This document shows, one piece after another, positions 911 through 12,385 of a stretch of 21,934 nt of DNA. The DNA lies in IMG/VR virus record IMGVR_UViG_3300044825_000577, positions 1-21,934 of that record. The stretch is one strand, 5' to 3'. This stretch comes from a virus. The notes beneath the pieces were generated by a model that was given only the letters and a program-made list of their open reading frames with translations, was not told the origin of the DNA and searched no databases. The stretch's first letter is position 1. Each line of letters begins with the position of its first letter. The translations under genes and the position numbers were made by a program.

Positions 911-1954
911 TTAACTGACGTTGCCAGAGACAACGCAGACTGTGCCGCTGATAAACAAGATCGTCGCAACGCCCCTAGTTGCCAGCGTCATCGTGTCCTT
1001 ATCCGTGTTTGTTCCAGCGATGTAAGCCGTGGTGATCGAGCAGGTGATGGTGATGTTGCCTGTGGTGTTGTTGAAGATCGAGATCACATCACCGGCAGCA
1101 AATGTGCTGTTCGGAATCGTGATCGACCCGCTGGTACCAACGCCGACAAACTTACCAACGTCTGTTGTTGCCAACGAATATGAAGTCGTCTTGTCCGATC
1201 CAGACTGCGGGATGTTTCTGTAACCGACAGAGTTCGTGCCATCTGCTGTGCAGTTAGTTAGCGTTCCAGAACTGGGAGTACCCAAAGCGCCGCCGGGAGC
1301 AACGTAATCAGTGCCAGCAGTAGCAGCAGCAATTACACCTGACGTGGCTTTTAATACGCCGGTAGTCGTAGCACGTTTAATCGTCTTGCCGCCAGTACCA
1401 GAGAACAGGGCAATCTCGTTATCTACCGAACTTGCTTGGCCGGTAACGTCGCCAGTGCCAGTGTCGCCCTTTGATGCAAGCAAAAGCCAGTATGCAGTCT
1501 GTGTATCAGGTTGCTGGTTTGTGCTGGCTTGAATTGCTAGATAGCTGCTGCCATTGGTGTAACTGACTACATCATTGGTGACATAGCTGGCACCGCTTGA
1601 CCAAGCGCCGCGAGGGGTGAAGCCAACAGCAACTGGTGCCGCGCTGCCTTCGTAAGCAGAGTACAAGCAGACAATAGTTGAGCCTGCAGAGGCACTAGCA
1701 ATGATCTTGTCGCCTGCATTCAGGTTGATCGGTTTAGGCCAAGTGAATGCCGTGTTAGCCGCAACAGCCTGACCGCTAATGATCGTGGTTGTTGCTGCGG
1801 TACTTTGGATATACACCTTGACCGTGATGGTCGCAGAGCTTCCTGTTCCATTGGCAAAGACTAGGCCGTGTACCGATGCCTCAATAGTTGCAGGACAAGT
1901 GTAAAGGTCGGTGTCTGTAGTACCGACTGCAATTGGTCTTCCTTTTAGTGCCAT
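911..1954 (-). CDS. Fibre-like tail protein with carbohydrate-binding-like module
   Basis: 347 residues. Residues 1-100 look like a Thr/Ala-rich beta domain. Residues 114-161 show the Trp/Tyr spacing of a small CBM5/12-like module (W118, Y124, V129, Y138, W156). Residues 168-234 form a segment common in phage fibre proteins (GDVTG ... EIALFSGTGGKTIK ... GALGTPSSGTLTN). The remainder is predicted beta structure ending in hydrophobic strands. The ATG at 1954 has GGGAG seven bases upstream inside the end of the preceding fibre gene, with only 2 bases between the genes, so co-translation is likely. It is probably a second receptor-facing appendage or a fibre extension. No enzyme motif was seen. 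The exact structural role is inferred from position and composition. Confidence 0.75.
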   Translation of the reverse strand: MALKGRPIAVGTTDTDLYTCPATIEASVHGLVFANGTGSSATITVKVYIQSTAATTTIISGQAVAANTAFTWPKPINLNAGDKIIASASAGSTIVCLYSAYEGSAAPVAVGFTPRGAWSSGASYVTNDVVSYTNGSSYLAIQASTNQQPDTQTAYWLLLASKGDTGTGDVTGQASSVDNEIALFSGTGGKTIKRATTTGVLKATSGVIAAATAGTDYVAPGGALGTPSSGTLTNCTADGTNSVGYRNIPQSGSDKTTSYSLATTDVGKFVGVGTSGSITIPNSTFAAGDVISIFNNTTGNITITCSITTAYIAGTNTDKDTMTLATRGVATILFISGTVCVVSGNVS

Positions 1955-1956
1955 GA

Positions 1957-3441
1957 TTAACTCCCGAAAACGAGTGCCATTGCCACAGGGTCGGGAATGG
2001 CTGAGACAGATGCAGCGGTTGCAGGGGTAAAGCCGAGTGCGGTAGTAACGTCCGTGCTAGTTAGTGTTACCGCACCAGCTCTAGTGTTAAAGCTAGTCAC
2101 GGCACCAGACACGCTGAACGCTGCCTGATCCCAAGCAGAGCCTGTCCACACATAAAGTTGATTTGCTGTCGTGCTCCAATAAATCGCACCGGTCAACAGC
2201 GCGTTGCCGTCGTTGTCAACGCTAGGCGCAGAAGACTTAGCGCCAAGGTAGCGATCATCAAAGGCATCGAAGCTGGCAGCAGCATTCGTCGCTGCGGTGC
2301 TGGCAGTGCTGGCTGAACTCGCTGCATTGCTTGCCGAGGTAGCAGCATTCGATGCGCTGGTCGCTGCGGCAGATGCGCTACTAGCAGCATTCGTCGCCTG
2401 CGTTGTCGCAGTGCTTGCGCTGTTCGCTGCATTTGTTGCGCTTGTCGATGCGTTGCTGGCCGATGTGCTGGCAGTGCTTGCGCTGTTCGATGCGTTGGTC
2501 GCAGCCGTGCTGGCGGTCGACGCAGACGAAGCTGCAGCTGTAGCCGAGTTGCTGGCATTGGTGGCTGCAGTGCTGGCCGTGGTCGCGCTGTTGCTGGCGT
2601 TCGTCGCCGAGGTGCTCGCGGTGCTTGCCGAGCTCGCCGCATTGGTAGCACTGGTCGAAGCGTTGGAAGCAGAAGTTGATGCAGAACTTGCAGAGCTCGA
2701 CGCATTGCTGGCAGATGTCGAGGCCGCCGATGCGCTTGAGGCCGCAGCCGACGCGCTTGAAGCCGCCGCAGCCGCAGATGCACCAGCCGCTGCAGCGTCA
2801 ACAATCAAAGCCCACTTCGCGCTGTCAGCATTGCTGCTGATCGGCGTGGTGCCGGTCGATGTATGCGCGGTCACGCAGATGTAGACGTTGCTGTTGCTCG
2901 CGTCCTTGACGATGTCGCGCAGCGCATAAGCAGTGCTGGCAGCCCAGTTGCCGCGCCAGGTGCCAATGGTGTCACCGATGATTGGGTTGCCAACGGAGTC
3001 AAACGCCAGCGTCTTGTTCGCCCGCACCGATGCCCTGGGCAGCGTCATGTTGATCGTGGTCGGGTCGGTCTGCGGTGCCTGCATCGCACGCGCCAGACCC
3101 TCGGCATTCTGCTGCGCGAAGATGGTCTGCTGGTCGAGCTCGTCGTTCAGCGTGTTGGCAAAGAAGTCGCCGCCCGTCACAAAGTCGCTGGTGCGCTGGA
3201 TGCTGCGGTTGCCGACGATGGCGATCTGGGTCGCACCGGTTGGGGCAGCTGTGAGCGTGATCGACCCGGTGCCGTTGGTGTTGATCGTCACCGTGTAGTC
3301 GGTGGTCAGCGTCAGCAGCGTGTCGTCCCGGTAAACCGCAATGTCGGTCGCCGCCAGGATCTCAAACGTGAAGGCATACGGGCCTGTGCCGGACGCGGCA
3401 AAGACCACACGCCTTGCAACATTGTTAATTGGTACGCCCAT
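1957..3441 (-). CDS. Tail fibre protein, T7 gp17-like N-terminus with alanine-heptad rod
   Basis: 494 residues. Residues 1-125 resemble the virion-attachment domain of T7 tail fibres: a beta-rich start, then DFVTGGDFFANTLNDELDQ followed by a helical stretch (86-120). Residues 161-212 form a Trp/Tyr-spaced module like small carbohydrate-binding domains. Residues 215-390 contain almost only Ala, Ser, Thr and Asn, with Ala alternately every 4 and 3 positions, as in a heptad coiled-coil rod. The C-terminus carries FDDRYLGAKSSAPSVDNDG (391-409) and FNTRAGAVTL (451-460), segments recurrent in phage fibres. No receptor-binding knob or chaperone domain is visible, so the tip may be supplied by the two genes downstream. 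The start ATG at 3441 has AAGAAGGGG upstream in a 28-base gap after the gp16-like gene. Confidence 0.88.
   Translation of the reverse strand: MGVPINNVARRVVFAASGTGPYAFTFEILAATDIAVYRDDTLLTLTTDYTVTINTNGTGSITLTAAPTGATQIAIVGNRSIQRTSDFVTGGDFFANTLNDELDQQTIFAQQNAEGLARAMQAPQTDPTTINMTLPRASVRANKTLAFDSVGNPIIGDTIGTWRGNWAASTAYALRDIVKDASNSNVYICVTAHTSTGTTPISSNADSAKWALIVDAAAAGASAAAAASSASAAASSASAASTSASNASSSASSASTSASNASTSATNAASSASTASTSATNASNSATTASTAATNASNSATAAASSASTASTAATNASNSASTASTSASNASTSATNAANSASTATTQATNAASSASAAATSASNAATSASNAASSASTASTAATNAAASFDAFDDRYLGAKSSAPSVDNDGNALLTGAIYWSTTANQLYVWTGSAWDQAAFSVSGAVTSFNTRAGAVTLTSTDVTTALGFTPATAASVSAIPDPVAMALVFGS
2272..2799 (-). repeat. Degenerate repeat encoding the alanine-heptad rod of the tail fibre
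   Basis: This stretch encodes fibre residues 215-390. It consists of degenerate GCN-, AGC-, ACN- and AAC-type codons in blocks such as ASTSATNAS and SASTASTAATNAS, repeated with small changes. The low complexity opens long spurious frames on both strands. In-register gain or loss of heptads by recombination would change fibre length without a frameshift. Confidence 0.8.
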
Positions 3442-3469: not shown

Positions 3470-6400
3470 CTACTTGCCGTAAGTGTCGGAAATCGTTCGA
3501 TTCCTACGCATTTTCGCGCCAAGTTCTGGGAACTCGATCCTGATGTCCGGGGTGCCGTCTGGGTTCTTTAGCCCAATATCAACAGGCTCGCCGTCAGCGT
3601 CGCCGACCATCCGCTGCTTTGCCAGGTCGCGGTACGTCGATACCAGATTACTAATCAATGCCTGCTTCCTGCCGCGTGACGACGGTGTGCCGGTTACTTC
3701 AGAATCAATCGCGTCCTGCTTGATCTCGTAAATGATCCGCTGCTCAAGATTCATGTCGTTGTCGAGGATCTCTTGACCATACAATTTCTTGAAACGGTTG
3801 ATCTGCCCTGAAGACATTCTCACTCCGTCCCATGTTTCCGACGGGTTGGCAATGCCGAAATTCAGGCTGGCCAGGATTTCGTCAGCCTCAGAGAATTTGC
3901 CTTCCTGTGCTTGAATGATCGGCGACCAATTCAGCCAGTAATTAAGGCCACGGTTGCGAACCTTGCTTTCGCGCCCCAAGTTGTCCAGCAGCGGCGGCAC
4001 GTTTTCCGACAGGCCTGGAATGCGGGACATGACACGCTGCTTGGCCTCATAGAAAGCCCGCAGACCGGCTGGCGTGTCCATCTCTGGCGACTTGGTGTTT
4101 GACCTGGTCGGATTGACCATCCGCTCGATGTGCGCCATCAGCGTGCTGTTCGTCATGCCAACACCTGGCGTGCCGGTGTACACAAAGTTCGCGTACTGTT
4201 TGGCGAGCGCGTCAAAGGTCTGCACGATCTTCTCGCCGGTATCGGTCGAGCGGGATCTGGCAATCTGCAGCAGTTCGCCGACACCCTGCATCAGCGGCAG
4301 GTTGCTCATGTACTCACCGACCGCAGTCATGCTGGCCATTGCCATGACCTCAAAATCTGAGCGGTCTGGGTGACGGTCAAACTTGCTTGCATCGCCCATG
4401 TCAGAGCCCATTGCAAACAGCATGGAAATTGGGTCGAAGCGGGCATACGACACATAAACCTTGTCGGGGCCGACGGCCACCTTAGTGATGCCGCGCAGGC
4501 GATCAAGGTTTGCTTCGCTAATCTCGCCCTTGTCAAACACAAGCGAATGCGGTTGCCAGCCCAAGGCCTCCAGCGCCTTGCGATCCTCGGTCTGCGACGG
4601 GCCTGAGCCGGTAATGCGGTTGTCAAGGTTCAGTAATGCAGCGCTAGTAATGGCGGTGCCGCCCATCGCCAGTCTGGCAATTGCAACATCACGATGTCTG
4701 CCGCCTTTGCTCCACAAGTCATAGAAACGGGGGGACAAGGTATTGAGCAATGGGATGTAACTTGATCCTTCGATGAACAGGTTTTGCACTGTCTTGGCAA
4801 ACGGCACGATGACTTTTGCTGGAGGCAAATTCAGGATCTTGTTGCTCCAGTAGTAAGTCTCGCCAAGCGCACCTTCGCGCTCAATGTTCTCGGTCAGGGT
4901 GATCATGCGCCGGAAGCCATCGATGCTTTCCTGCATCGAGCGCGGGCGCTCTGTCAGAAACTGCTCCAGCTTTGCCGTGACTTCAGTCCTTGCTCCATCC
5001 GGCGACATGCCTTCAGCAATTAGACGGTCGTATTCTTTGTTTGCAAAACGCCAGCCTTCTTCATGCAGCTGGTAGCGGGCAGCGATGCCGCCAACAAATT
5101 CATCGGCAGCAGCGATTGGCTTGAAGCTCAGAATATCTTGCACGAAGCCAATGCCGTCGATGCCGCGCCCCAGCCATGTGTCGCGCAGATCCGGCGTGCG
5201 ATAGACCTCTTTGCCAAACATGCGGATCGGCGTGTCGGACAAATACTCTGAACTCAGCGGATTCATTACCCGGCCTGATTCAGATACCTTCGATTCGCCG
5301 CCGCGCTTGATCGCTTCCTTGGCAAGTTCCCATCCGTCGAGAATGCCGTTCTTGACACCAGACAGGCCAGCCATGATGTCATCGAACTGGTAGCGGTCTG
5401 GGTTCGCGTCAGGGAACAATTGGCGAACCTTGCCGATTGGAACGGCCAGCGTTCTTTCAATCGGCTGCAAAGATCCAAACACCGAACTGCCAGACAAGTT
5501 GTAGGCGTGCGTCTGCGGGTCGTTCAGCAGGTTGGCCTGGTAGGTATGAAACCAGATGTCGCGCAGCTTTGCGCCCAGCCCAGCCTCGACCAAACGGTTC
5601 TTGCCTGCGCGTGTCGGCGTGCTGATGTAGTCCTGCGCCAACTCAAACAGCACTTTGTCGCTTTGGTTCGCTCCGAGCTCGTCCAGCGCAGCGCGGATGT
5701 CCTTGGTGTTCAGGCCTGGCCCCTTGTCTTTTACGCGCTTGAACACGTTCAGCGAGCGAGCAACGTCGGTCTGGATGCCTTTGAGTTGGTCAACGATGAT
5801 TTTGTGCTGCGCCAGCTTCAGCCGCAGATCCAGCTTGCCTGCATCGTCCAGTTGACCTGCAGCCATCTTGGCAAACAGGCCATCCAGCATCTTTGCGCTT
5901 TCGTCGTGCGCGACAACAGCACCAGCCAGTTGCTTGGCAAGCTGGCTACCGCCGACGGTGGCTTCCATGCTTTCGCCAGCAAGCGCACGCTGCAAGAACT
6001 GTTCAGGCACACCAGCATTGATCGCCCGCATGGTTATGGAGCGAATCGACATGCTGGGATCTTGCTTGGCAGCAGACTCACCGGCAGCGCGGATTGTCGC
6101 CGCCAAACCGTCGTTGTCAGTCCATGCGCTGGAGATCGGTGTTTCTGGAGGCTTTGCCTGCGCCTCGCCAGCGGCAATCATGCGCTCGCGCTCTGCCGCA
6201 ATCTTGTTTGCCTCGCTGATGTCGACCGGTCGAGGCTTTGGTGCCGGTGGCTTTGGTTGTGCTGGGGCGACCGGTGGGGGCGATGGATTGACCACGCCAG
6301 GCGGCGCTGGCGGGCGCGGCCCCCTGATTACGTCGTCAAGCAGGCTTGGTTCTTTGGCTGCGCGTGCGCCTTTCCTCGTAAGCGGCTCAAGGATCTCGCG

Positions 6401-6547
6401 GGTAAGTTTGCTGCCAACTCCGGCAACCTGGATTGTTTCTGGAGCCGCCTGCTCATTCGTTACTTCCATGTCAGGCAGTTCTGGCTGCGTTATGTCATTG
6501 GCACGCAGCAGCTGGTCAAGGCGCGGATTTTGATCGATGGCCATCAT
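3470..6547 (-). CDS. Large internal virion / ejection protein (T7 gp16-like position), polyvalent-protein-like core
   Basis: 1025 residues, the largest gene here. The N-terminus is polar, with a Pro-rich linker at 77-108. Residues 331-357 contain IWFHTYQANLLNDPQTHAYN, resembling the 'W-x-LLSGPxTHxxN' motif of large phage polyvalent and DdrB-like proteins. Residues about 470-720 continue that core: an alternating helical segment, PPAKVIVPFAKTVQNLF (575-591), ARLAMGGTAITSAALLNLDNRITGSGP (624-650) and LGWQPHSL (662-669). Position after gp14- and gp15-like genes and before the fibre matches T7 gp16, which forms the trans-envelope ejection channel. The N-terminal transglycosylase domain of T7 gp16 is not visible. 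ATG at 6547 overlaps the previous stop as ATGA; a second ATG at 6544 is also possible. AGGAG precedes both, inside a perfect hairpin. The stop is TAG. Confidence 0.82.
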   Translation of the reverse strand: MMAIDQNPRLDQLLRANDITQPELPDMEVTNEQAAPETIQVAGVGSKLTREILEPLTRKGARAAKEPSLLDDVIRGPRPPAPPGVVNPSPPPVAPAQPKPPAPKPRPVDISEANKIAAERERMIAAGEAQAKPPETPISSAWTDNDGLAATIRAAGESAAKQDPSMSIRSITMRAINAGVPEQFLQRALAGESMEATVGGSQLAKQLAGAVVAHDESAKMLDGLFAKMAAGQLDDAGKLDLRLKLAQHKIIVDQLKGIQTDVARSLNVFKRVKDKGPGLNTKDIRAALDELGANQSDKVLFELAQDYISTPTRAGKNRLVEAGLGAKLRDIWFHTYQANLLNDPQTHAYNLSGSSVFGSLQPIERTLAVPIGKVRQLFPDANPDRYQFDDIMAGLSGVKNGILDGWELAKEAIKRGGESKVSESGRVMNPLSSEYLSDTPIRMFGKEVYRTPDLRDTWLGRGIDGIGFVQDILSFKPIAAADEFVGGIAARYQLHEEGWRFANKEYDRLIAEGMSPDGARTEVTAKLEQFLTERPRSMQESIDGFRRMITLTENIEREGALGETYYWSNKILNLPPAKVIVPFAKTVQNLFIEGSSYIPLLNTLSPRFYDLWSKGGRHRDVAIARLAMGGTAITSAALLNLDNRITGSGPSQTEDRKALEALGWQPHSLVFDKGEISEANLDRLRGITKVAVGPDKVYVSYARFDPISMLFAMGSDMGDASKFDRHPDRSDFEVMAMASMTAVGEYMSNLPLMQGVGELLQIARSRSTDTGEKIVQTFDALAKQYANFVYTGTPGVGMTNSTLMAHIERMVNPTRSNTKSPEMDTPAGLRAFYEAKQRVMSRIPGLSENVPPLLDNLGRESKVRNRGLNYWLNWSPIIQAQEGKFSEADEILASLNFGIANPSETWDGVRMSSGQINRFKKLYGQEILDNDMNLEQRIIYEIKQDAIDSEVTGTPSSRGRKQALISNLVSTYRDLAKQRMVGDADGEPVDIGLKNPDGTPDIRIEFPELGAKMRRNRTISDTYGK

Positions 6548-8007
6548 TGAGCTCCTGATCCAGGAGCTCTGCGGCCCCCAGTTACTTGTTGGGGGAGGGC
6601 GCTGCTTTGTTGCGTTCCTTCTCGCGCTCCAGAACCGTCGCGTTCAGGCTGTCGCACAACTCCTGACCGATCTTGGCCGCTATGCTGTTTGGGTCGATAG
6701 TCCTGAAGCGTTCCGGTATAGACGGATTCACTGATTCGACCAGCTTGGTACTCTTGTCTAAGGATTTCATAAAGTTTTTCCTCAATCTCATTGTAGTCAA
6801 ATTTTGGAATGTTTGCCACAGGGACAAGGTTTGCCCCGCCTTTGCCAAGAGTGTTATCAATTCCGACAACGTCTACATTTGGATTATTTGCATACATATC
6901 GGCCAACTTATCAATATTGCTACGAGCGCTTGGGTGCTGGCTCGCAAAAACTTCTAGCGGAACTGTTCGTCCACTGCCTAATTCAGCTTCTTGTCGCATA
7001 GCACGCTCAAGCACACCGTAAAAAGCCTCAATTGGATCGCGGGCGGTATAAGCAATTACAACTTCACGCCCAGCTTTTAAAGCTCTCTCTACTTTGTTTT
7101 GGGCTGTTTTTAAATTAGCAAGTGTTGTGTCATAAACAATTTCTGATTTTCCCGAAATGTTGCCCATTTTTTTGCGGCCAGAGGATTTCCCAGAGCCGCC
7201 GCCGCCGCCAAGAATTAGCACGCGAGAATCCAAACCTTGTGGTGTTGGTTTAGATAGTTTTTGCTCAAATACTCGCTCAACAAAATCACTTGCTGGATCT
7301 TGTACGGCAGATGCTAAAGATCGATTCTTCCGGTAGTCTAAAGACAATTCTCTGGCATCATCAGTATTTAAAATGCGACCGCCCTCCGTGCCATCAAGTT
7401 TTGAGTATTGCTTAACTAAGTTTTCAAAATTTTGATCAAGTTGATCTATAAATGTTTGCCTTGCTTTATTTGCAGTTGATTGCGTTATTTTTTTTATACC
7501 AGTCTTGACGCCTTTGGCAGCAGTCTTCAAACCTTGAGCAGCTGGCAGCACATCAAACGCAGCCAGCTTTGCGTCTTCAGACAGCTGCATTGTCTGACCC
7601 TTGCCCGTCACTATCGGCTTGCCTTCAGCCGGTGCCTGCAGAACCTTTGGCGTGCCTTGCCATTCAGGTTCACCCATCACAGATCTGCTGCCTGACTTGG
7701 CGCTGCCGACAAAGGGCATCAGGTCAGCCAGGCTGATCTCACCAATGCCTGGCACATCGACTTGCCCGAGGCTGTCAACAAACCTGCCGATCTGCTCAAG
7801 GGTCACGCCAGCTGTCTGCAGCGCAGATTGCAGCCTGGTCGGTTGTACAGCGCGGATTTCGCCGTAACCTTGCGGTGCGTCGGTGCGCGTGGCGCTGGGG
7901 CCAGCCGCCAGCTGCAACCCCTCAAGCGACTGCTCGTCCGGCGGCGCTGACGGGTAGTCGCGCTGCAGCGTGTAATCAATGTATGCAGTGTCGAAGTCTT
8001 TAATCAT
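6544..8007 (-). CDS. Virion-associated protein with zeta-toxin-like P-loop kinase domain
   Basis: 487 residues between the gp15- and gp16-like genes, overlapping both by ATGA (4 bases). Residues 1-165 are Ala/Gly/Pro-rich and resemble other ejection-protein N-termini, without a named domain. Residues about 215-400 match phage-type zeta-toxin kinases: Walker A GGGGGSGKSS (267-276), then IVYDTTLAN (290-298), ALKAGREVVIAYTARDP (309-325), GRTVPLEV (346-353), H358 and VVGIDNT (380-386). Only 19 residues separate the P-loop Lys274 from Asp293, much less than in classical zeta toxins, so the substrate-binding part is compact or missing. Residues 430-487 are low complexity. DNA for residues about 170-412 is strikingly AT-rich. 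Zeta kinases phosphorylate UDP-amino sugars; activity here is unproven. No epsilon-like antitoxin gene adjoins it. Confidence 0.8.
   Translation of the reverse strand: MIKDFDTAYIDYTLQRDYPSAPPDEQSLEGLQLAAGPSATRTDAPQGYGEIRAVQPTRLQSALQTAGVTLEQIGRFVDSLGQVDVPGIGEISLADLMPFVGSAKSGSRSVMGEPEWQGTPKVLQAPAEGKPIVTGKGQTMQLSEDAKLAAFDVLPAAQGLKTAAKGVKTGIKKITQSTANKARQTFIDQLDQNFENLVKQYSKLDGTEGGRILNTDDARELSLDYRKNRSLASAVQDPASDFVERVFEQKLSKPTPQGLDSRVLILGGGGGSGKSSGRKKMGNISGKSEIVYDTTLANLKTAQNKVERALKAGREVVIAYTARDPIEAFYGVLERAMRQEAELGSGRTVPLEVFASQHPSARSNIDKLADMYANNPNVDVVGIDNTLGKGGANLVPVANIPKFDYNEIEEKLYEILRQEYQAGRISESVYTGTLQDYRPKQHSGQDRSGVVRQPERDGSGAREGTQQSSALPQQVTGGRRAPGSGAQ
6549..6569 (-). promoter_or_regulatory. Perfect hairpin enclosing the ribosome-binding site of the gp16-like gene
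   Basis: On the minus strand, arms GAGCTCCTG and CAGGAGCTC form a 9-bp perfect inverted repeat around a 3-base loop (GAT). The AGGAG in the second arm is the only Shine-Dalgarno sequence for the 1025-residue gene, 4 bases from the ATG at 6547 and 7 from the ATG at 6544. The hairpin lies within the last codons of the kinase-bearing gene, so ribosomes finishing that gene would have to melt it. This suggests strict translational coupling; it is inferred and untested. Confidence 0.65.
6770..7500 (-). other. AT-rich compositional island within the kinase-bearing gene
   Basis: Hand counts of 60-base lines give 20/60 GC at 7081-7140 and 17/60 at 7441-7500. Outside the island the counts are 34/60 at 7741-7800 and 36/60 at 6601-6660. 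The island matches the zeta-like kinase domain and its N-terminal helical lead-in, while the ends of the same gene have the composition of the neighbours. This suggests the domain was acquired separately from the rest of the gene. Confidence 0.7.
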
Positions 8008-9755
8008 AGTGCGTTCAATTTCCGGCGCTGCTCTTCAATTGCAGCAAGCGATTGACGGATTGCATCGAGATCCTCGCTGCGCAGACCAAGGCGATCTTTG
8101 TCTCTGGCGATGTCTTCGTATCTGGTTTCCTCGGTAAATGTGATGCCTGTCTTTCGTATGTTGCCGCCAGCACCGTAGGAGGTATTCAAATCTTTGAGCC
8201 TGCTTTCGATAGCTTTTGCAGGAACAGACTCGCGCCGTTCTTTGAGAACTCTGTCTCTGATCTGACTTCTGCTCGGTGGCGATTTGCCTTCTGCGTTTGC
8301 TTTGTCCGTTTCCTCTTTCAACAGCTTGTCGAACCTTGTTTGCATTCCGATCAGAGCGTCGGTCTGCTTTGCTGTCAGGTTGGTCTGACCAGTGACAATC
8401 TTCGACTCAAGCTGGAACGATCTGTCTATATCGCGCTGCTCCTCATTGTTGCGGCTGATGTAGAACGGCAGCACGTTTTCGCTTAAGCGCTTGTAACCAA
8501 TGCCAAGCTGGACAGCGCGTTTTTCAATTGACTCAGGGCTGTTGTGCAGTCCTTTCATGATTTCTTTCTTCAGCACAAACTCAGCCTGTGGGTTTCCTTG
8601 CTCGCCCTGCTGCAGTTTCTTCGGCATGTCAAACACCGCTTCTGGCGTGATCGCTTTGGGGTCAAGGATAGACAGTGACTGCAAATCTTTAAGCGCCTGC
8701 TTGTCACGACCGCCGCTGTTGAGATAACGGCTTGTCAACGCTGCAGCCTGGATAACGCGGGTTTCGTGCATTTCCTTGTCGTCGCGCTGCTTGGCTTCCA
8801 CGCGCTGGCTGACGATGTCACGCAGTGCGCTCCTGACCTTTGCCTGCTGATCGAAAGGCATGTTTGCCCAGACGCTGGTCATCTTCCCAGCATCGTTCTT
8901 ATCGAGCCTTGCGATTGCTTTTGTCGGATCGCTGGCAAAGTCTGGCGATGAAACGTATTTGGCGACAGCGCCAAACAAACCATCTTCAATTGACTTTTCC
9001 ACACGCTTGCTGACGGCTTCTGCTTTGGCCGCATCACCTAGCACCACAGCTTCGTCGGTAACGGTTTTGCGAAATGTCTGTGCGTAGTAGGGTGTCAACT
9101 CTGGATTCTGAAAAACATTCGCCTCAAACAATTGCGACTGCGTAACAAAATCGCCATCTATTTTGATCAGCCTGCGTTCTTTGTCTGCTTTAAGCGCTTT
9201 CTCTCTGGCCGCATCGATGACGGTTTTGCCATGCACGATCATGTTTGCGCGAAACTTCAGCGCAGCTTCGCCATCGATCTTGGCCAAAGACTGCGCATAC
9301 CCTTCAGTCATCGAAGCGATTTCATCCTGAATTTTTTGGGGATCGACCTGTTCTTTCTCCACCCTTGCCAGCAAGGATGCAATCTTTTCCCGCCCCTCAA
9401 TTTCAAAGTGGCTGGAAAACTCAAAGCTGCGAGCTTTGCGAACTGCTTTGTCGTAGAAGCTCAAATTGCCCGAGGGAATGATGTTCGATAAGTCGCCGTT
9501 CTGAGCCATTGCAAAGTCAGCTGGTGTCAGCGGTCTATTCGCAACGTCACGCAGCGCTTCTTGCTGGCGCAGTTCCCCCGCAACCACATTGACGGTGGAA
9601 CCCATGCGATCCAGCACTTGAGCATAGGCCTGCGAGCCAGCAGCTTGTTGGCGCGCTGCGGTCATGTAGTCGACCTGGCGGTCGACCACGCGCTCCATCG
9701 GCACGCCAGTTACCGGTCGAAGCTGGATCTGTCCTGATTGCAGTCTGGTCGCCAT
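8004..9755 (-). CDS. Internal virion protein, T7 gp15-like
   Basis: 583 residues, mostly predicted helical and charged, with no signal peptide or clear membrane segment. The N-terminus (RLQSGQIQLRPVTG, then a long Ala/Gln-rich helix to about residue 70) resembles gp15-type proteins, which form a tube with gp16 across the periplasm during DNA ejection. Lys/Arg/Glu-rich stretches lie around 195-215 and 290-340, and the C-terminus is charged (DIARDKDRLGLRSEDLDAIRQ, about 555-575). Size is somewhat below T7 gp15 (747 residues). Order after the gp14-like gene supports the call. The start ATG at 9755 lies 3 bases past the previous stop, and the end overlaps the kinase-bearing gene by ATGA. No enzymatic motif was recognised. 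The assignment rests mainly on synteny and general character. Confidence 0.75.
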   Translation of the reverse strand: MATRLQSGQIQLRPVTGVPMERVVDRQVDYMTAARQQAAGSQAYAQVLDRMGSTVNVVAGELRQQEALRDVANRPLTPADFAMAQNGDLSNIIPSGNLSFYDKAVRKARSFEFSSHFEIEGREKIASLLARVEKEQVDPQKIQDEIASMTEGYAQSLAKIDGEAALKFRANMIVHGKTVIDAAREKALKADKERRLIKIDGDFVTQSQLFEANVFQNPELTPYYAQTFRKTVTDEAVVLGDAAKAEAVSKRVEKSIEDGLFGAVAKYVSSPDFASDPTKAIARLDKNDAGKMTSVWANMPFDQQAKVRSALRDIVSQRVEAKQRDDKEMHETRVIQAAALTSRYLNSGGRDKQALKDLQSLSILDPKAITPEAVFDMPKKLQQGEQGNPQAEFVLKKEIMKGLHNSPESIEKRAVQLGIGYKRLSENVLPFYISRNNEEQRDIDRSFQLESKIVTGQTNLTAKQTDALIGMQTRFDKLLKEETDKANAEGKSPPSRSQIRDRVLKERRESVPAKAIESRLKDLNTSYGAGGNIRKTGITFTEETRYEDIARDKDRLGLRSEDLDAIRQSLAAIEEQRRKLNAL

Positions 9756-9758
9756 GTT

Positions 9759-10400
9759 TTATCCCAATGTCTGTGGTGCTTTTTCTGATGGCTTCTTCTC
9801 GCCATAGATAGTCTTGTACGCATCGATGCCGCCCTGGATCAGCGTTGCATTCGCCAGCAGACCACCGGTCTGACGGGCTGCCGCGCCAGCCTGCTGGTAC
9901 TGACCGGATTGCTGACGGGCAGAGAACAGGTTCAGCGTGTTCTGCAGTTCAGCCGATTGCATCATCGCGGTCGCATCCTCAAAGCCAAGCACTCGGGCGG
10001 TCAGAGCGTTCAGGTCTGCAATGCCGACATCGAACATCACTTCCTGCACGTTCTCGCGCTGGATACCAGCAGCCGACCCGCCTGCGTAGTCGATGCCAGC
10101 CGCAGCTGCTCGCGCACGGACGGTGGCGTTTGTTGCTCGCAAGTTCTTTAGCAGCGTGTTGCCAGCGATCTCGTAATTCCTCGCCTCTATCTCTGCTCGC
10201 TTAAGCAGGCGGCCAGCCTGGATCTGGGCGTACTCCTGCGAATACTGCGCATTGACCTCGGCCACAGCCAAAGTGTTGCGTGCCTGCAACAGATAGCCTG
10301 TCTGCTGTTGGATAGCCGCAGCCTGCTGCGCTTGGGCTTGCCCATACGCGGCGATGAATCCTGCGATGCCTACTGCTTGTCCTGGTTCGATCATTGTCAT
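9759..10400 (-). CDS. Internal virion protein, T7 gp14-like
   Basis: 213 residues. A short hydrophobic segment (AVGIAGFIAAYG, 9-20) precedes a long Ala/Gln-rich helical body. Residues about 111-165 contain VRARAAAAGIDYAGGSAAG, then a helical stretch, a pattern seen in gp14-type ejection proteins (a small turn with a GGS followed by helices). T7 gp14 (196 residues) is ejected first and forms the outer-membrane channel. The location directly after tail tube B is as in T7. The ATG at 10400 overlaps the tail tube B stop as ATGA; a second in-frame ATG lies two codons on. The C-terminus is polar and Lys/Pro-rich. Confidence 0.78.
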   Translation of the reverse strand: MTMIEPGQAVGIAGFIAAYGQAQAQQAAAIQQQTGYLLQARNTLAVAEVNAQYSQEYAQIQAGRLLKRAEIEARNYEIAGNTLLKNLRATNATVRARAAAAGIDYAGGSAAGIQRENVQEVMFDVGIADLNALTARVLGFEDATAMMQSAELQNTLNLFSARQQSGQYQQAGAAARQTGGLLANATLIQGGIDAYKTIYGEKKPSEKAPQTLG

Positions 10401-12385
10401 GTCCCTGAATAAACGGCCACGCGGTAGTCAAGGCCAAGCAAGTTCATCGCCAGCGGCAAGGTCTGCGACACCTCAATTGACTGCTCGCGGTTGTAGCCCA
10501 GCACACCGTTGACCCGCTTGATGCCGGTGAACGTCGGCACCGGCTCATCCAGCAGCGGGTTGTCCATTAGCCTAAATGCCACCTCGTTATTGTTTAGGAT
10601 GCAATGCTGGGTGTCCTCGAGCACCGCGCTGATCTCGACAATCCGCTTCTTGAAGCTGACGCGGCTGCCGGTCTGCAGCTTGATCTCGACGGGCATGGTC
10701 TTGACGTACACGGTGACAGGCAGGCCGACCTCGTAACTGGTGGTCGATTCGCGGTCGAACGTCACCGCGCCGCCTGCGCTGACAGTCTCGTTCGACTGCG
10801 GCACGCCGTCGGTGATCACGTTGAGCGCTTTGCCGATATGAGGCAGGCCAGAGCCGACACCACCAGCAGAGCCGCCCGTAAATGCGCAATCGGTATACAC
10901 ATCGTCCCTGAACTGCTCAATAAAGTACCGAGTCGTGCCGTTGAACACGCGCTTGGTCACGCAATAGATCTGCGTCACGTCCACGCCGACATCGATGAAT
11001 TCACCGTCCGTGGTGAACTCAGACGGCGCGGTGATCTGCTGGCTGCGCATGATGGAGAACACTGCCATCGTGCCGTCAGTGGTGTTAGTCATCAGCAGCA
11101 GGTCAGCTTCCTCGGTGCTGGATGCGCGGCGCAGGGCAATCCGTTGCGGGGCTTTCAGCAAGTGACCGGACAGCAGCGAGATCCGCTGTGTGATGTAGGT
11201 CAGCTGGGTGTCAGAGAACACGAACTCGTTGAGCGACTTGCCCTGGCGCTGGATATAGACCGAGCCAGATTCCACCGACTGCACGCGAGTGCCAGGCTTG
11301 ATGCCGTTGCGCGACACGTTCTTGAACGTGAAGGTCAGCGGGGTGATCGGATCGGTTCCCTGCTGCGGCACATAGAATTCACCGCCCGTGGTGAAGACCT
11401 GGAAGTCACGGGCGCTGATGATGTCGGTGATGACGTTGAGCTCGTTGGTGTCAAGCGTCGCCTCAACAGCGTCATCGTCCAAAGATTCATTTGGCACAAA
11501 ATCAAAGAACAAGCCAATTTTGCTGCCCCAGACCGTGGACGGACGCGACTTGCTGCCGCCAAAATACAGCCGGCCTTCGTGGAAAGTGACCGAGCGTGGC
11601 CATCCCTTGGTGCTTGACCACACATCTTCGTAGCCGGTTTCGAGTTCCCAACTCCCACTTGCTAAAGCGGTGGTATTAAAGAACGGATACTCAGTAATAC
11701 CTTCAACCACTGTTGAGCTAACAAAACGGACAATCTTCACCCTTCCTTGCGGCGTTCCGTTGATGTACTGATTGACATGGCCGCTGTTAAAAGTAGCTGC
11801 GCCAGCGGTTAATGTAATGTTCCCAGACACGGCTGAAGGCGTCAGCGTTGTCGTCGGGTTGCTGTAAGCAACAGTAAATGCGTATTTCGGGATCGAGTCA
11901 AACGTAATGGTTGACACCGTCCAGCTTGCGTCGTTTGCTCCGCGCACGATCTTGACCGGCTGCAAGTCTGGATGCACGACGATCAAGGTGTCGGCAGACT
12001 GCGTCCAGCACATGTCGTCGACAATACTTGAGCCAATAGTCGTGGTCAGGTAGTTGTTGCCAGTGCTGTTGATGTTGGCCACCACCGCGCCGTTCTTGAT
12101 CACATACATGCGGTTGTGCGTGAAGCAGAGCATGTACGAATCGTCGACCGAGAACTGGAACGGCACCAAGCGCACGCCGTTGCCTGCAGACGCGGTGCTG
12201 GTGTTGGGTAGCTCGAGAATGTGCTTGGTGCCAGGGCGGCGACGCAGGCCACCTTGTGGCTGGATCAAGACGTTGGTGGCCTTGGCCAATGCGTTTGCGT
12301 ATGACTGCAAGTCCACGCGAGCTCGCAGCAGCGGGTCGAGTTCCCCGGTGCTGAAGTTGGTGGTGAAGTCAACGAAGCGCGGCAT
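10397..12385 (-). CDS. Tail tubular protein B (T7 gp12-like nozzle)
   Basis: 662 residues. The N-terminus carries the nozzle family signature: NFSTGELDPLLRARVDL (10-26), then NVLIQPQGGLRRRPGTKH (38-55). A beta-rich body includes SVTFHEGRLYFGGS about residue 264-277, typical of the propeller-like part of gp12 proteins. The protein forms the distal tail tube through which DNA leaves, and binds tail tube A and the fibres. Length is slightly below T7 gp12 (794 residues). It overlaps tail tube A by one base (TGATG). DNA for residues about 160-248 is somewhat less GC-rich (27/60 at 11641-11700), matching an insertion domain with a GNITLTAGAATF strand; this may be a swapped module. Confidence 0.92.
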   Translation of the reverse strand: MPRFVDFTTNFSTGELDPLLRARVDLQSYANALAKATNVLIQPQGGLRRRPGTKHILELPNTSTASAGNGVRLVPFQFSVDDSYMLCFTHNRMYVIKNGAVVANINSTGNNYLTTTIGSSIVDDMCWTQSADTLIVVHPDLQPVKIVRGANDASWTVSTITFDSIPKYAFTVAYSNPTTTLTPSAVSGNITLTAGAATFNSGHVNQYINGTPQGRVKIVRFVSSTVVEGITEYPFFNTTALASGSWELETGYEDVWSSTKGWPRSVTFHEGRLYFGGSKSRPSTVWGSKIGLFFDFVPNESLDDDAVEATLDTNELNVITDIISARDFQVFTTGGEFYVPQQGTDPITPLTFTFKNVSRNGIKPGTRVQSVESGSVYIQRQGKSLNEFVFSDTQLTYITQRISLLSGHLLKAPQRIALRRASSTEEADLLLMTNTTDGTMAVFSIMRSQQITAPSEFTTDGEFIDVGVDVTQIYCVTKRVFNGTTRYFIEQFRDDVYTDCAFTGGSAGGVGSGLPHIGKALNVITDGVPQSNETVSAGGAVTFDRESTTSYEVGLPVTVYVKTMPVEIKLQTGSRVSFKKRIVEISAVLEDTQHCILNNNEVAFRLMDNPLLDEPVPTFTGIKRVNGVLGYNREQSIEVSQTLPLAMNLLGLDYRVAVYSGT

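What the first reader, a model, noticed from the sequence alone, without database searches (positions are those of the whole stretch)
6735..7485. Zeta-toxin-like kinase domain placed inside the ejection-protein block
Seen: a Walker A GGGGGSGKSS and following motifs (VYDTTLAN, GREVVIAYTARDP, GRTVPLEV, VGIDNT) in a 487-residue protein between gp15- and gp16-like genes, all ATGA-overlapped. Known: zeta kinases phosphorylate UDP-amino sugars and stop wall synthesis; polyvalent phage proteins (Iyer et al. 2017) carry such effectors. Inferred: this protein is packaged and delivered with the DNA, acting on the host or on competing phages. The stretch between P-loop and the next motif is much shorter than in classical zeta toxins, so the substrate could differ.
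Basis: partly seen in the sequence, partly recalled or inferred. Interest (0 to 1): 0.75.

Follow-up and report, generated by a model that had tools for sequence, protein, structure and literature searches.

The report
Swappable toxin-like cargo in phage injector
This short-tailed phage carries, between the genes for its DNA-injection proteins, an intact kinase of a type known to poison bacterial cell-wall synthesis, and related phages fill the same slot with unrelated, interchangeable protein modules, which suggests a swappable payload injected with the DNA (the injection itself is not yet shown).

Summary
Residues about 170-445 of the 487-aa protein (window 6544-8007, minus strand) form a zeta-toxin-fold kinase: Pfam Zeta_toxin E=2.6e-13, AlphaFold2 pLDDT 95, structural Z 27.6 to gonococcal zeta1 against 11.4 for streptococcal zeta. 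Asp216, Lys274, Arg335 and Arg347 are invariant in 30 phage homologues; the domain is under purifying selection. The larger result is the slot. In about 60 related contigs the gene between gp15 and gp16 keeps related N-terminal parts, but its C-terminal module is swapped: zeta kinase, ADP-ribosyltransferase, GP88, ParB-like, DUF7178, unknown modules, or nothing, with flanking DNA up to 90-98% identical. Packaging, ejection and the kinase substrate are inferred, not shown. Zeta kinases in phage polyvalent proteins were known; a polymorphic-toxin-like cassette slot inside the ejection block is, as far as I could find, new.

The parts
6544..8007 (-). slot-X gene, 487 aa: conserved N-terminal part + zeta-type kinase module + short tail
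7507..8007 (-). N-terminal part (residues 1-167), low-confidence/disordered in the model; 76% identical (residues 9-160) in L103, which has no kinase, and 70% (residues 27-182) in L107, which has an ART instead
6688..7476 (-). kinase domain (residues 178-440), zeta fold of the rewired ng_zeta1 type; GC3 about 0.32 against 0.56-0.79 in most other genes of the window
7360..7362 (-). Asp216, predicted catalytic base (equivalent to ng_zeta1 Asp56), in the motif GRILNTD
7180..7209 (-). P-loop GGGGGSGKSS (residues 267-276), Lys274 invariant (ng_zeta1 Lys115)
7129..7131 (-). Asp293 of YDT, invariant; equivalent by alignment to ng_zeta1 Glu133, not to the catalytic Asp
7003..7005 (-). Arg335, invariant (ng_zeta1 Arg175, phosphate patch)
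6967..6969 (-). Arg347 of GRTVP, invariant (ng_zeta1 Arg181, phosphate patch)
6544..6579 (-). C-terminal tail GGRRAPGSGAQ; its DNA holds AGGAG (6552-6556), the likely Shine-Dalgarno of gp16. The tail is shared with L139, whose module is unrelated
8004..9755 (-). gp15-like internal virion protein, named by position (583 aa); ATGA overlap with slot X
3470..6547 (-). gp16-like internal virion protein (1025 aa); ATGA overlap with slot X
9759..10400 (-). gp14-like internal virion protein
10397..12385 (-). tail tubular protein B / nozzle, used as the marker for the slot survey

Best explanation
Slot X encodes a fourth ejection-block protein: an N-terminal part that I infer docks it in the virion core/ejectosome, a hinge, and a C-terminal effector module. 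In this phage the module is a kinase of the rewired ng_zeta1 class. Proposed mechanism: the protein is packaged with gp14/gp15/gp16 and ejected into the host. There the kinase uses ATP (Lys274, Arg335, Arg347) and Asp216 to phosphorylate a small-molecule hydroxyl, most likely on a UDP-sugar precursor of peptidoglycan/LPS, stalling wall synthesis at entry; late in infection the same activity could also help lysis. Recombination between the conserved N-terminal part/hinge and the conserved tail-plus-gp16 start swaps the module among related phages. Shown: fold, catalytic residues, selection, gene position, module swapping. Inferred: packaging, ejection, substrate, benefit.
For: Fold and class: Pfam E=2.6e-13; PDB profile E=1.3e-20 to Zeta_1 toxin; model pLDDT 95, Foldseek TM 0.81 and Z 27.6 to 6eph, next 11.4. 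Catalytic residues invariant in 30 homologues; omega 0.12-0.19 for the domain. Position: immediately after gp15 and before gp16 with ATGA coupling. In 9 further, distant IMG/VR loci the kinase gene lies a few genes downstream of a nozzle homologue, with PHROG 'virion structural protein' next in five of the neighbours scanned; in four loci it is part of giant polyvalent-type proteins with LPD22, or with ddrB-ParB and ART-PolyVal. Slot: 43 distinct X proteins of 145-957 aa with gp15 upstream and gp16 downstream; 5 N-types x 10 C-modules, most modules seen behind two or more N-types; nozzle, gp14, gp15 and gp16 homologous in all pairs while X C-terminal parts have no hit in 80% of pairs, and 33 of 85 pairs with N-terminal identity of 70% or more have unrelated C-terminal parts. 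Kinase phage L148 and non-kinase phage L139 share X residues 1-167 at 96% and gp16 at 91%. L184/L185: 91.8% DNA identity over 5.85 kb up to the hinge and 90.4% over 4.3 kb from the stop codon on. Module GC3 about 0.32.
Against: No virion proteomics was found for any member, so packaging rests on gene position and analogy. Substrate is unknown: by sequence alignment the ng_zeta1 Asn75 contact to the UNAM lactyl group is Ser/Ala here (Lys59 is Arg), and AvrRxo1 scores as high structurally as streptococcal zeta. Stand-alone homologues lie in front of the terminase genes in other phages, so the kinase family is not confined to ejection blocks. Effector-less X proteins of 145-230 aa exist, so the module is dispensable. 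Most other modules have no known activity, so 'effector' is an inference for them. N-terminal 'docking' has no structural support (pLDDT under 50).
Confidence: 0.6

Rival explanations
1. The module is a real, ejected kinase but acts on another substrate (NAD, a nucleotide, a host second messenger, a nucleic-acid end) and serves counter-defence or takeover rather than wall poisoning.
For: Zeta-fold kinases include AvrRxo1 (Z 11.4) and polynucleotide kinases (Z about 9); UNAM-contacting Asn75 is not conserved by alignment with ng_zeta1; family-specific invariant motifs (RDP, H of THxG, DN of DNS) are absent from ng_zeta1; the slot also holds ART and ParB-like modules.
Against: By far the closest structure is the UDP-sugar kinase ng_zeta1 (Z 27.6), including both phosphate-patch arginines and the same topology.
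Confidence: 0.3
2. X is made late and acts inside the producing cell (for example to stop wall synthesis before lysis or to block superinfection), and is not ejected.
For: Structural genes of such phages are expressed late (general knowledge); the kinase homologues placed before the terminase genes are stand-alone and need not be in virions.
Against: Conserved placement and translational coupling inside the gp14-gp15-X-gp16 block, a shared N-terminal part kept even when no module is present, and presence in giant virion-neighbouring polyvalent proteins at the same place.
Confidence: 0.25
3. The slot variability is ordinary phage mosaicism or metagenome mis-assembly, and the C-terminal parts are structural extensions without catalytic roles.
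For: Ejection proteins are known to be mosaic and to swap domains such as the peptidoglycan hydrolase (PMC8954989).
Against: The same modules recur in independent contigs behind different N-types, with flanks of 88-98% identity spanning kilobases inside contigs; some modules carry recognised families and the kinase active site is intact and under purifying selection; gp15, gp16 and nozzle do not show it.
Confidence: 0.12

Closest known systems
ng_zeta1 toxin of the Neisseria gonorrhoeae epsilon1/zeta1 system (PMC5923241; 6EPG/6EPH/6EPI)
   Same: Same rewired block order, fold (Z 27.6), catalytic Asp before the P-loop, Lys and both Arg
   Different: No antitoxin gene beside it and placed in a phage ejection block as a module of a larger protein; the ng_zeta1 OB domain is outside the match; Asn75 contact not conserved by sequence alignment; extra invariant RDP, THxG and DNS-type motifs
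Polyvalent proteins of phages and conjugative elements (PMC5512222)
   Same: Zeta kinase, ART-PolyVal and ddrB-ParB domains near virion genes, inferred packaging
   Different: That paper says its proteins do not follow the layout of fixed N-terminal part plus variable C-terminal toxin; the slot here does, with one exchangeable module per protein
Bacterial polymorphic toxins (PMC3482391)
   Same: Conserved N-terminal part, variable C-terminal module exchanged by recombination
   Different: Phage-encoded, presumably delivered by the ejectosome; no immunity genes or silent cassette arrays seen
T7 ejection proteins gp14/gp15/gp16 (PMC8954989)
   Same: Same operon order and neighbouring genes
   Different: T7 as described there has three ejection proteins and no slot-X gene between gp15 and gp16
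Methylophilales phage MEP301 (MW452941)
   Same: Closest named relative by nozzle (58%); has a 161-aa gene at the slot position
   Different: No effector module in the slot; two genes follow where one gp16 gene would be expected

Membership tests
Zeta-toxin-like kinase (Pfam PF06414 superfamily) | Curated HMM score above cut-off | tested here: met
   50.3 bits against cut-off 22.3; all 14 architectures scanned match at E<=0.01
Zeta-toxin-like kinase (Pfam PF06414 superfamily) | P-loop Lys and catalytic Asp conserved | tested here: met
   Lys274 and Asp216 invariant in 30 homologues
ng_zeta1 subclass | Rewired order: catalytic Asp block before the P-loop | tested here: met
   Sequence alignment and Z 27.6 over 253 residues to 6EPH, far above classical zeta at 11.4
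ng_zeta1 subclass | Residues contacting UNAM conserved (Lys59, Asn75, Arg175, Arg181) | tested here: inconclusive
   Arg175/Arg181 met; Lys59 is Arg; Asn75 is Ser/Ala, alignment-dependent
ng_zeta1 subclass | Phosphorylates UDP-sugars at C4'-OH | not testable with these tools
   needs an enzyme assay
Epsilon/zeta toxin-antitoxin system | Cognate antitoxin gene next to the toxin | tested here: not met
   Flanking genes are gp15-like and gp16-like, both ATGA-overlapped; no small ORF between
Polyvalent proteins | Effector domains in large multidomain proteins beside virion genes | tested here: inconclusive
   Homologues of the domain sit in 1549-2231-aa proteins with LPD22, or ddrB-ParB plus ART-PolyVal, but the window protein itself has one recognised domain in 487 aa
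Polymorphic-toxin-like system | Shared N-terminal part with non-homologous, exchangeable C-terminal modules | tested here: met
Polymorphic-toxin-like system | Dedicated immunity genes | tested here: inconclusive
   no ORF between X and gp16 in the window; not searched elsewhere in the genomes
Ejected virion protein | Present in virions and delivered to the cell | not testable with these tools
   only positional and architectural support

The most novel reading that the evidence does not exclude
Short-tailed phages of this group possess a dedicated payload slot in their ejectosome: one ejection protein with a conserved docking part whose C-terminal effector is exchanged by recombination, giving a polymorphic arsenal (wall-poisoning kinase, ADP-ribosyltransferase, ParB-like, and several unknown activities) injected at the moment of infection.
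Probability: 0.55. Interest if true: 0.78.

Novelty: new variant of a known kind. Interest (0 to 1): 0.64.

Why it matters
Proteins injected with phage DNA act before any phage gene is expressed, so they may decide early host takeover and escape from defence. A slot with fixed borders and interchangeable modules makes this testable: the slot can be listed across metagenomes to find new early-acting enzymes, and the shared N-terminal part is a candidate loading signal for phage ejectosomes. The kinase itself would be a case of an ng_zeta1-type enzyme used by a virus rather than by a toxin-antitoxin pair.

Tried and rejected
Classical zeta/PezT assignment: rejected because block order and Z scores point to ng_zeta1. 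Asp293 as base: rejected by alignment. Epsilon/zeta TA module: no antitoxin gene. Nearest plasmid relatives: none found at E 1e-3. Named phages: only MW202577, annotated 'thymidylate kinase', carries the domain at the sensitivity used. Identity of unknown modules: the module profiles searched (C1 and C4 together as A11, C3, C5, C7) had no PDB relative, and module representatives had no NCBIfam hit; the PADLOC CARF hit of the window protein (E=0.005) is taken as chance. Independent acquisition of the kinase in each ejection block was tested by tree: backbone unresolved, 4 label changes, so neither one nor several origins is shown; the pre-terminase group is one clade. Search for virion evidence in papers: no paper holds both 'zeta toxin' and 'internal virion protein'; the MEP301 paper has no mass spectrometry.

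Full report
1. What is there. The window is a 21,934-base virus record holding the structural half of a T7-like podovirus on the minus strand. The ORF at 6544-8007(-) has 487 codons and lies between a gp15-like (8004-9755) and a gp16-like (3470-6547) gene, both junctions being ATGA overlaps. PHROGs names the gp16-like protein an internal virion protein (E=7.9e-17), the 213-aa protein weakly the same (E=2.6e-4) and the 662-aa protein a tail protein (E=1.1e-120). The gp15-like protein had no family hit and is named by position.

2. The kinase. Pfam finds Zeta_toxin at E=2.6e-13; phmmer and a profile search of PDB sequences both find the N. gonorrhoeae Zeta_1 toxin first (E=2e-6 and 1.3e-20). An AlphaFold2 model of residues 174-440 from 30 phage sequences has mean pLDDT 95 and pTM 0.91. 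Its best structural match is 6EPH (TM 0.81, Z 27.6 over 253 residues), far above streptococcal zeta and AvrRxo1 (Z 11.4). Rocker et al. (PMC5923241) report that in ng_zeta1 two sequence blocks have swapped places relative to classical zeta toxins. The window protein shares that order: the block with the catalytic Asp (window GRILNTD, Asp216; ng_zeta1 Asp56) comes before the P-loop (Lys274; ng_zeta1 Lys115). This is why the P-loop is so close to the YDT motif. Asp216, Lys274, Asp293, Arg335 and Arg347 are invariant in 30 homologues, most about 40% identical to the window's. The ng_zeta1 residues Arg175 and Arg181 correspond to Arg335 and Arg347; Lys59 corresponds to Arg219; Asn75, which contacts the lactyl group of UNAM, falls on Ser/Ala by sequence alignment. 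The catalytic apparatus is therefore intact and the substrate open. dN/dS of the domain among window, L001 and L002 is 0.12-0.19.

3. Where relatives lie. A profile scan of IMG/VR gave 104 confirmed relatives, 80 kept. They fall mainly in two settings. In one, the kinase is a domain of a 487-2231-aa protein placed a few genes downstream of the nozzle gene; homologues of the window's nozzle were found in L007, L008, L018, L050, L058, L065, L072, L079 and L081, and five of the downstream neighbours are PHROG 684 'virion structural protein'. Four of these proteins are giant polyvalent-type proteins with LPD22, or ddrB-ParB plus ART-PolyVal. In the other setting a stand-alone gene of about 300 aa lies just before the terminase genes; these form one clade. 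Bacterial genomes hold prophage-like giant versions and chromosomal stand-alone versions. Iyer et al. (PMC5512222) had already listed zeta-like kinases in polyvalent and MuF-fused proteins and proposed that they help entry by weakening the wall.

4. The slot. Residues 1-167 of the window protein are not zeta-like. They recur at 70-76% identity in L103 (799 aa) and L107 (416 aa), which lack the kinase. I therefore collected phages by their nozzle gene and read the gene between gp15 and gp16. It was found in nearly all contigs that reach far enough, but varies from 145 to 957 aa. Among 59 distinct sequences, simple clustering gives five N-terminal types and ten C-terminal modules, among them zeta kinase, ART-PolyVal, GP88, a ParB C-terminal-like module and DUF7178-containing modules, the rest unknown; seven complete proteins have no module. 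Most modules occur behind two or more N-types; the zeta module was seen behind one (N3). As a control, nozzle, gp14, gp15 and gp16 find each other in all pairs of phages, while the C-terminal parts of X have no hit in 80% of pairs; of 85 pairs with N-terminal parts at least 70% identical, 33 have unrelated C-terminal parts.

5. Clean swaps. L148 (kinase) and L139 (600-aa unknown module) are 96% identical over X residues 1-167 and 91% over all of gp16. L184 and L185 are 91.8% identical over 5.85 kb of DNA up to the hinge and 90.4% over 4.3 kb from the stop codon on, with unrelated modules in between; L116/L167 resume at 97.9% exactly at the stop. The last residues (GRRAPxxGAQ) are shared by the window protein and L139, probably because their DNA carries the likely ribosome-binding site of gp16 (AGGAG). 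In the reverse direction, window and L148 share the whole X gene at 84% while their gp15 and gp16 are only about 30% identical. The kinase module has GC3 0.32 against 0.56-0.79 in most other genes of the window (two tail genes at the left end are also low: 0.34 and 0.52; gene 2-901 shows that low GC3 alone is not proof of transfer), and dS of N-terminal part and kinase disagree between pairs (window-L001 1.00 against 0.42; L001-L002 0.57 against 1.16). Together this says that the module moves on its own.

6. How it most likely works. Shown: an intact ng_zeta1-type kinase; position and translational coupling in the ejection block; module exchange at fixed borders. Inferred: the N-terminal part carries the protein into the virion and out with gp14-gp16; in the new host the kinase phosphorylates a precursor, most likely a UDP-sugar of peptidoglycan or LPS synthesis, and so stalls wall growth during takeover; other phages use ART or unknown modules for other early tasks. 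The chief doubts are packaging and substrate.

7. Comparison and novelty. It is a member of the zeta-kinase superfamily and of the ng_zeta1 subclass by structure. It is not an epsilon/zeta TA module. It belongs to the broad idea of polyvalent proteins, but the fixed N-terminal part with one exchangeable C-terminal module is the plan of bacterial polymorphic toxins, a plan that Iyer et al. say their polyvalent proteins did not follow. The review of ejection proteins describes mosaicism and one domain swap, not an effector slot. The held library is open-access papers only, so prior description elsewhere cannot be ruled out. I rate it a new variant of a known kind.

Noticed in passing
window 911-1954 (-) and 1957-3441 (-): Two tail genes carry CBM5/12-like carbohydrate-binding stretches, both under the curated cut-off; possibly chitin or glycan binding.
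   Followed up: no
L009, L010, L012, L026, L027, L053 and others: A separate clade of stand-alone ~300-aa kinases of the same family lies directly upstream of the terminase and portal genes in other phages.
   Followed up: partly
L090, L091, L093, L094, L095, L098: Acidobacteriota chromosomes carry stand-alone genes of the rewired kinase family; whether they are toxin-antitoxin pairs was not examined.
   Followed up: no
BFVD entry A0A2R8FDL0 (structure search): A cedratvirus protein matches the kinase model with TM 0.78 at 17% identity: the rewired fold may also occur in giant viruses of amoebae.
   Followed up: no
L185:14347-14877, L119:5487-6017, L141:11091-11621: A compact ~150-residue slot module (C7), 75-90% identical across two N-types, with no Pfam, NCBIfam or PDB relative: a candidate new effector domain.
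   Followed up: partly
L103, L106, L167 (module C5, about 600 aa): A large unknown module that replaces the kinase behind the window's own N-terminal type; no family or PDB hit.
   Followed up: partly
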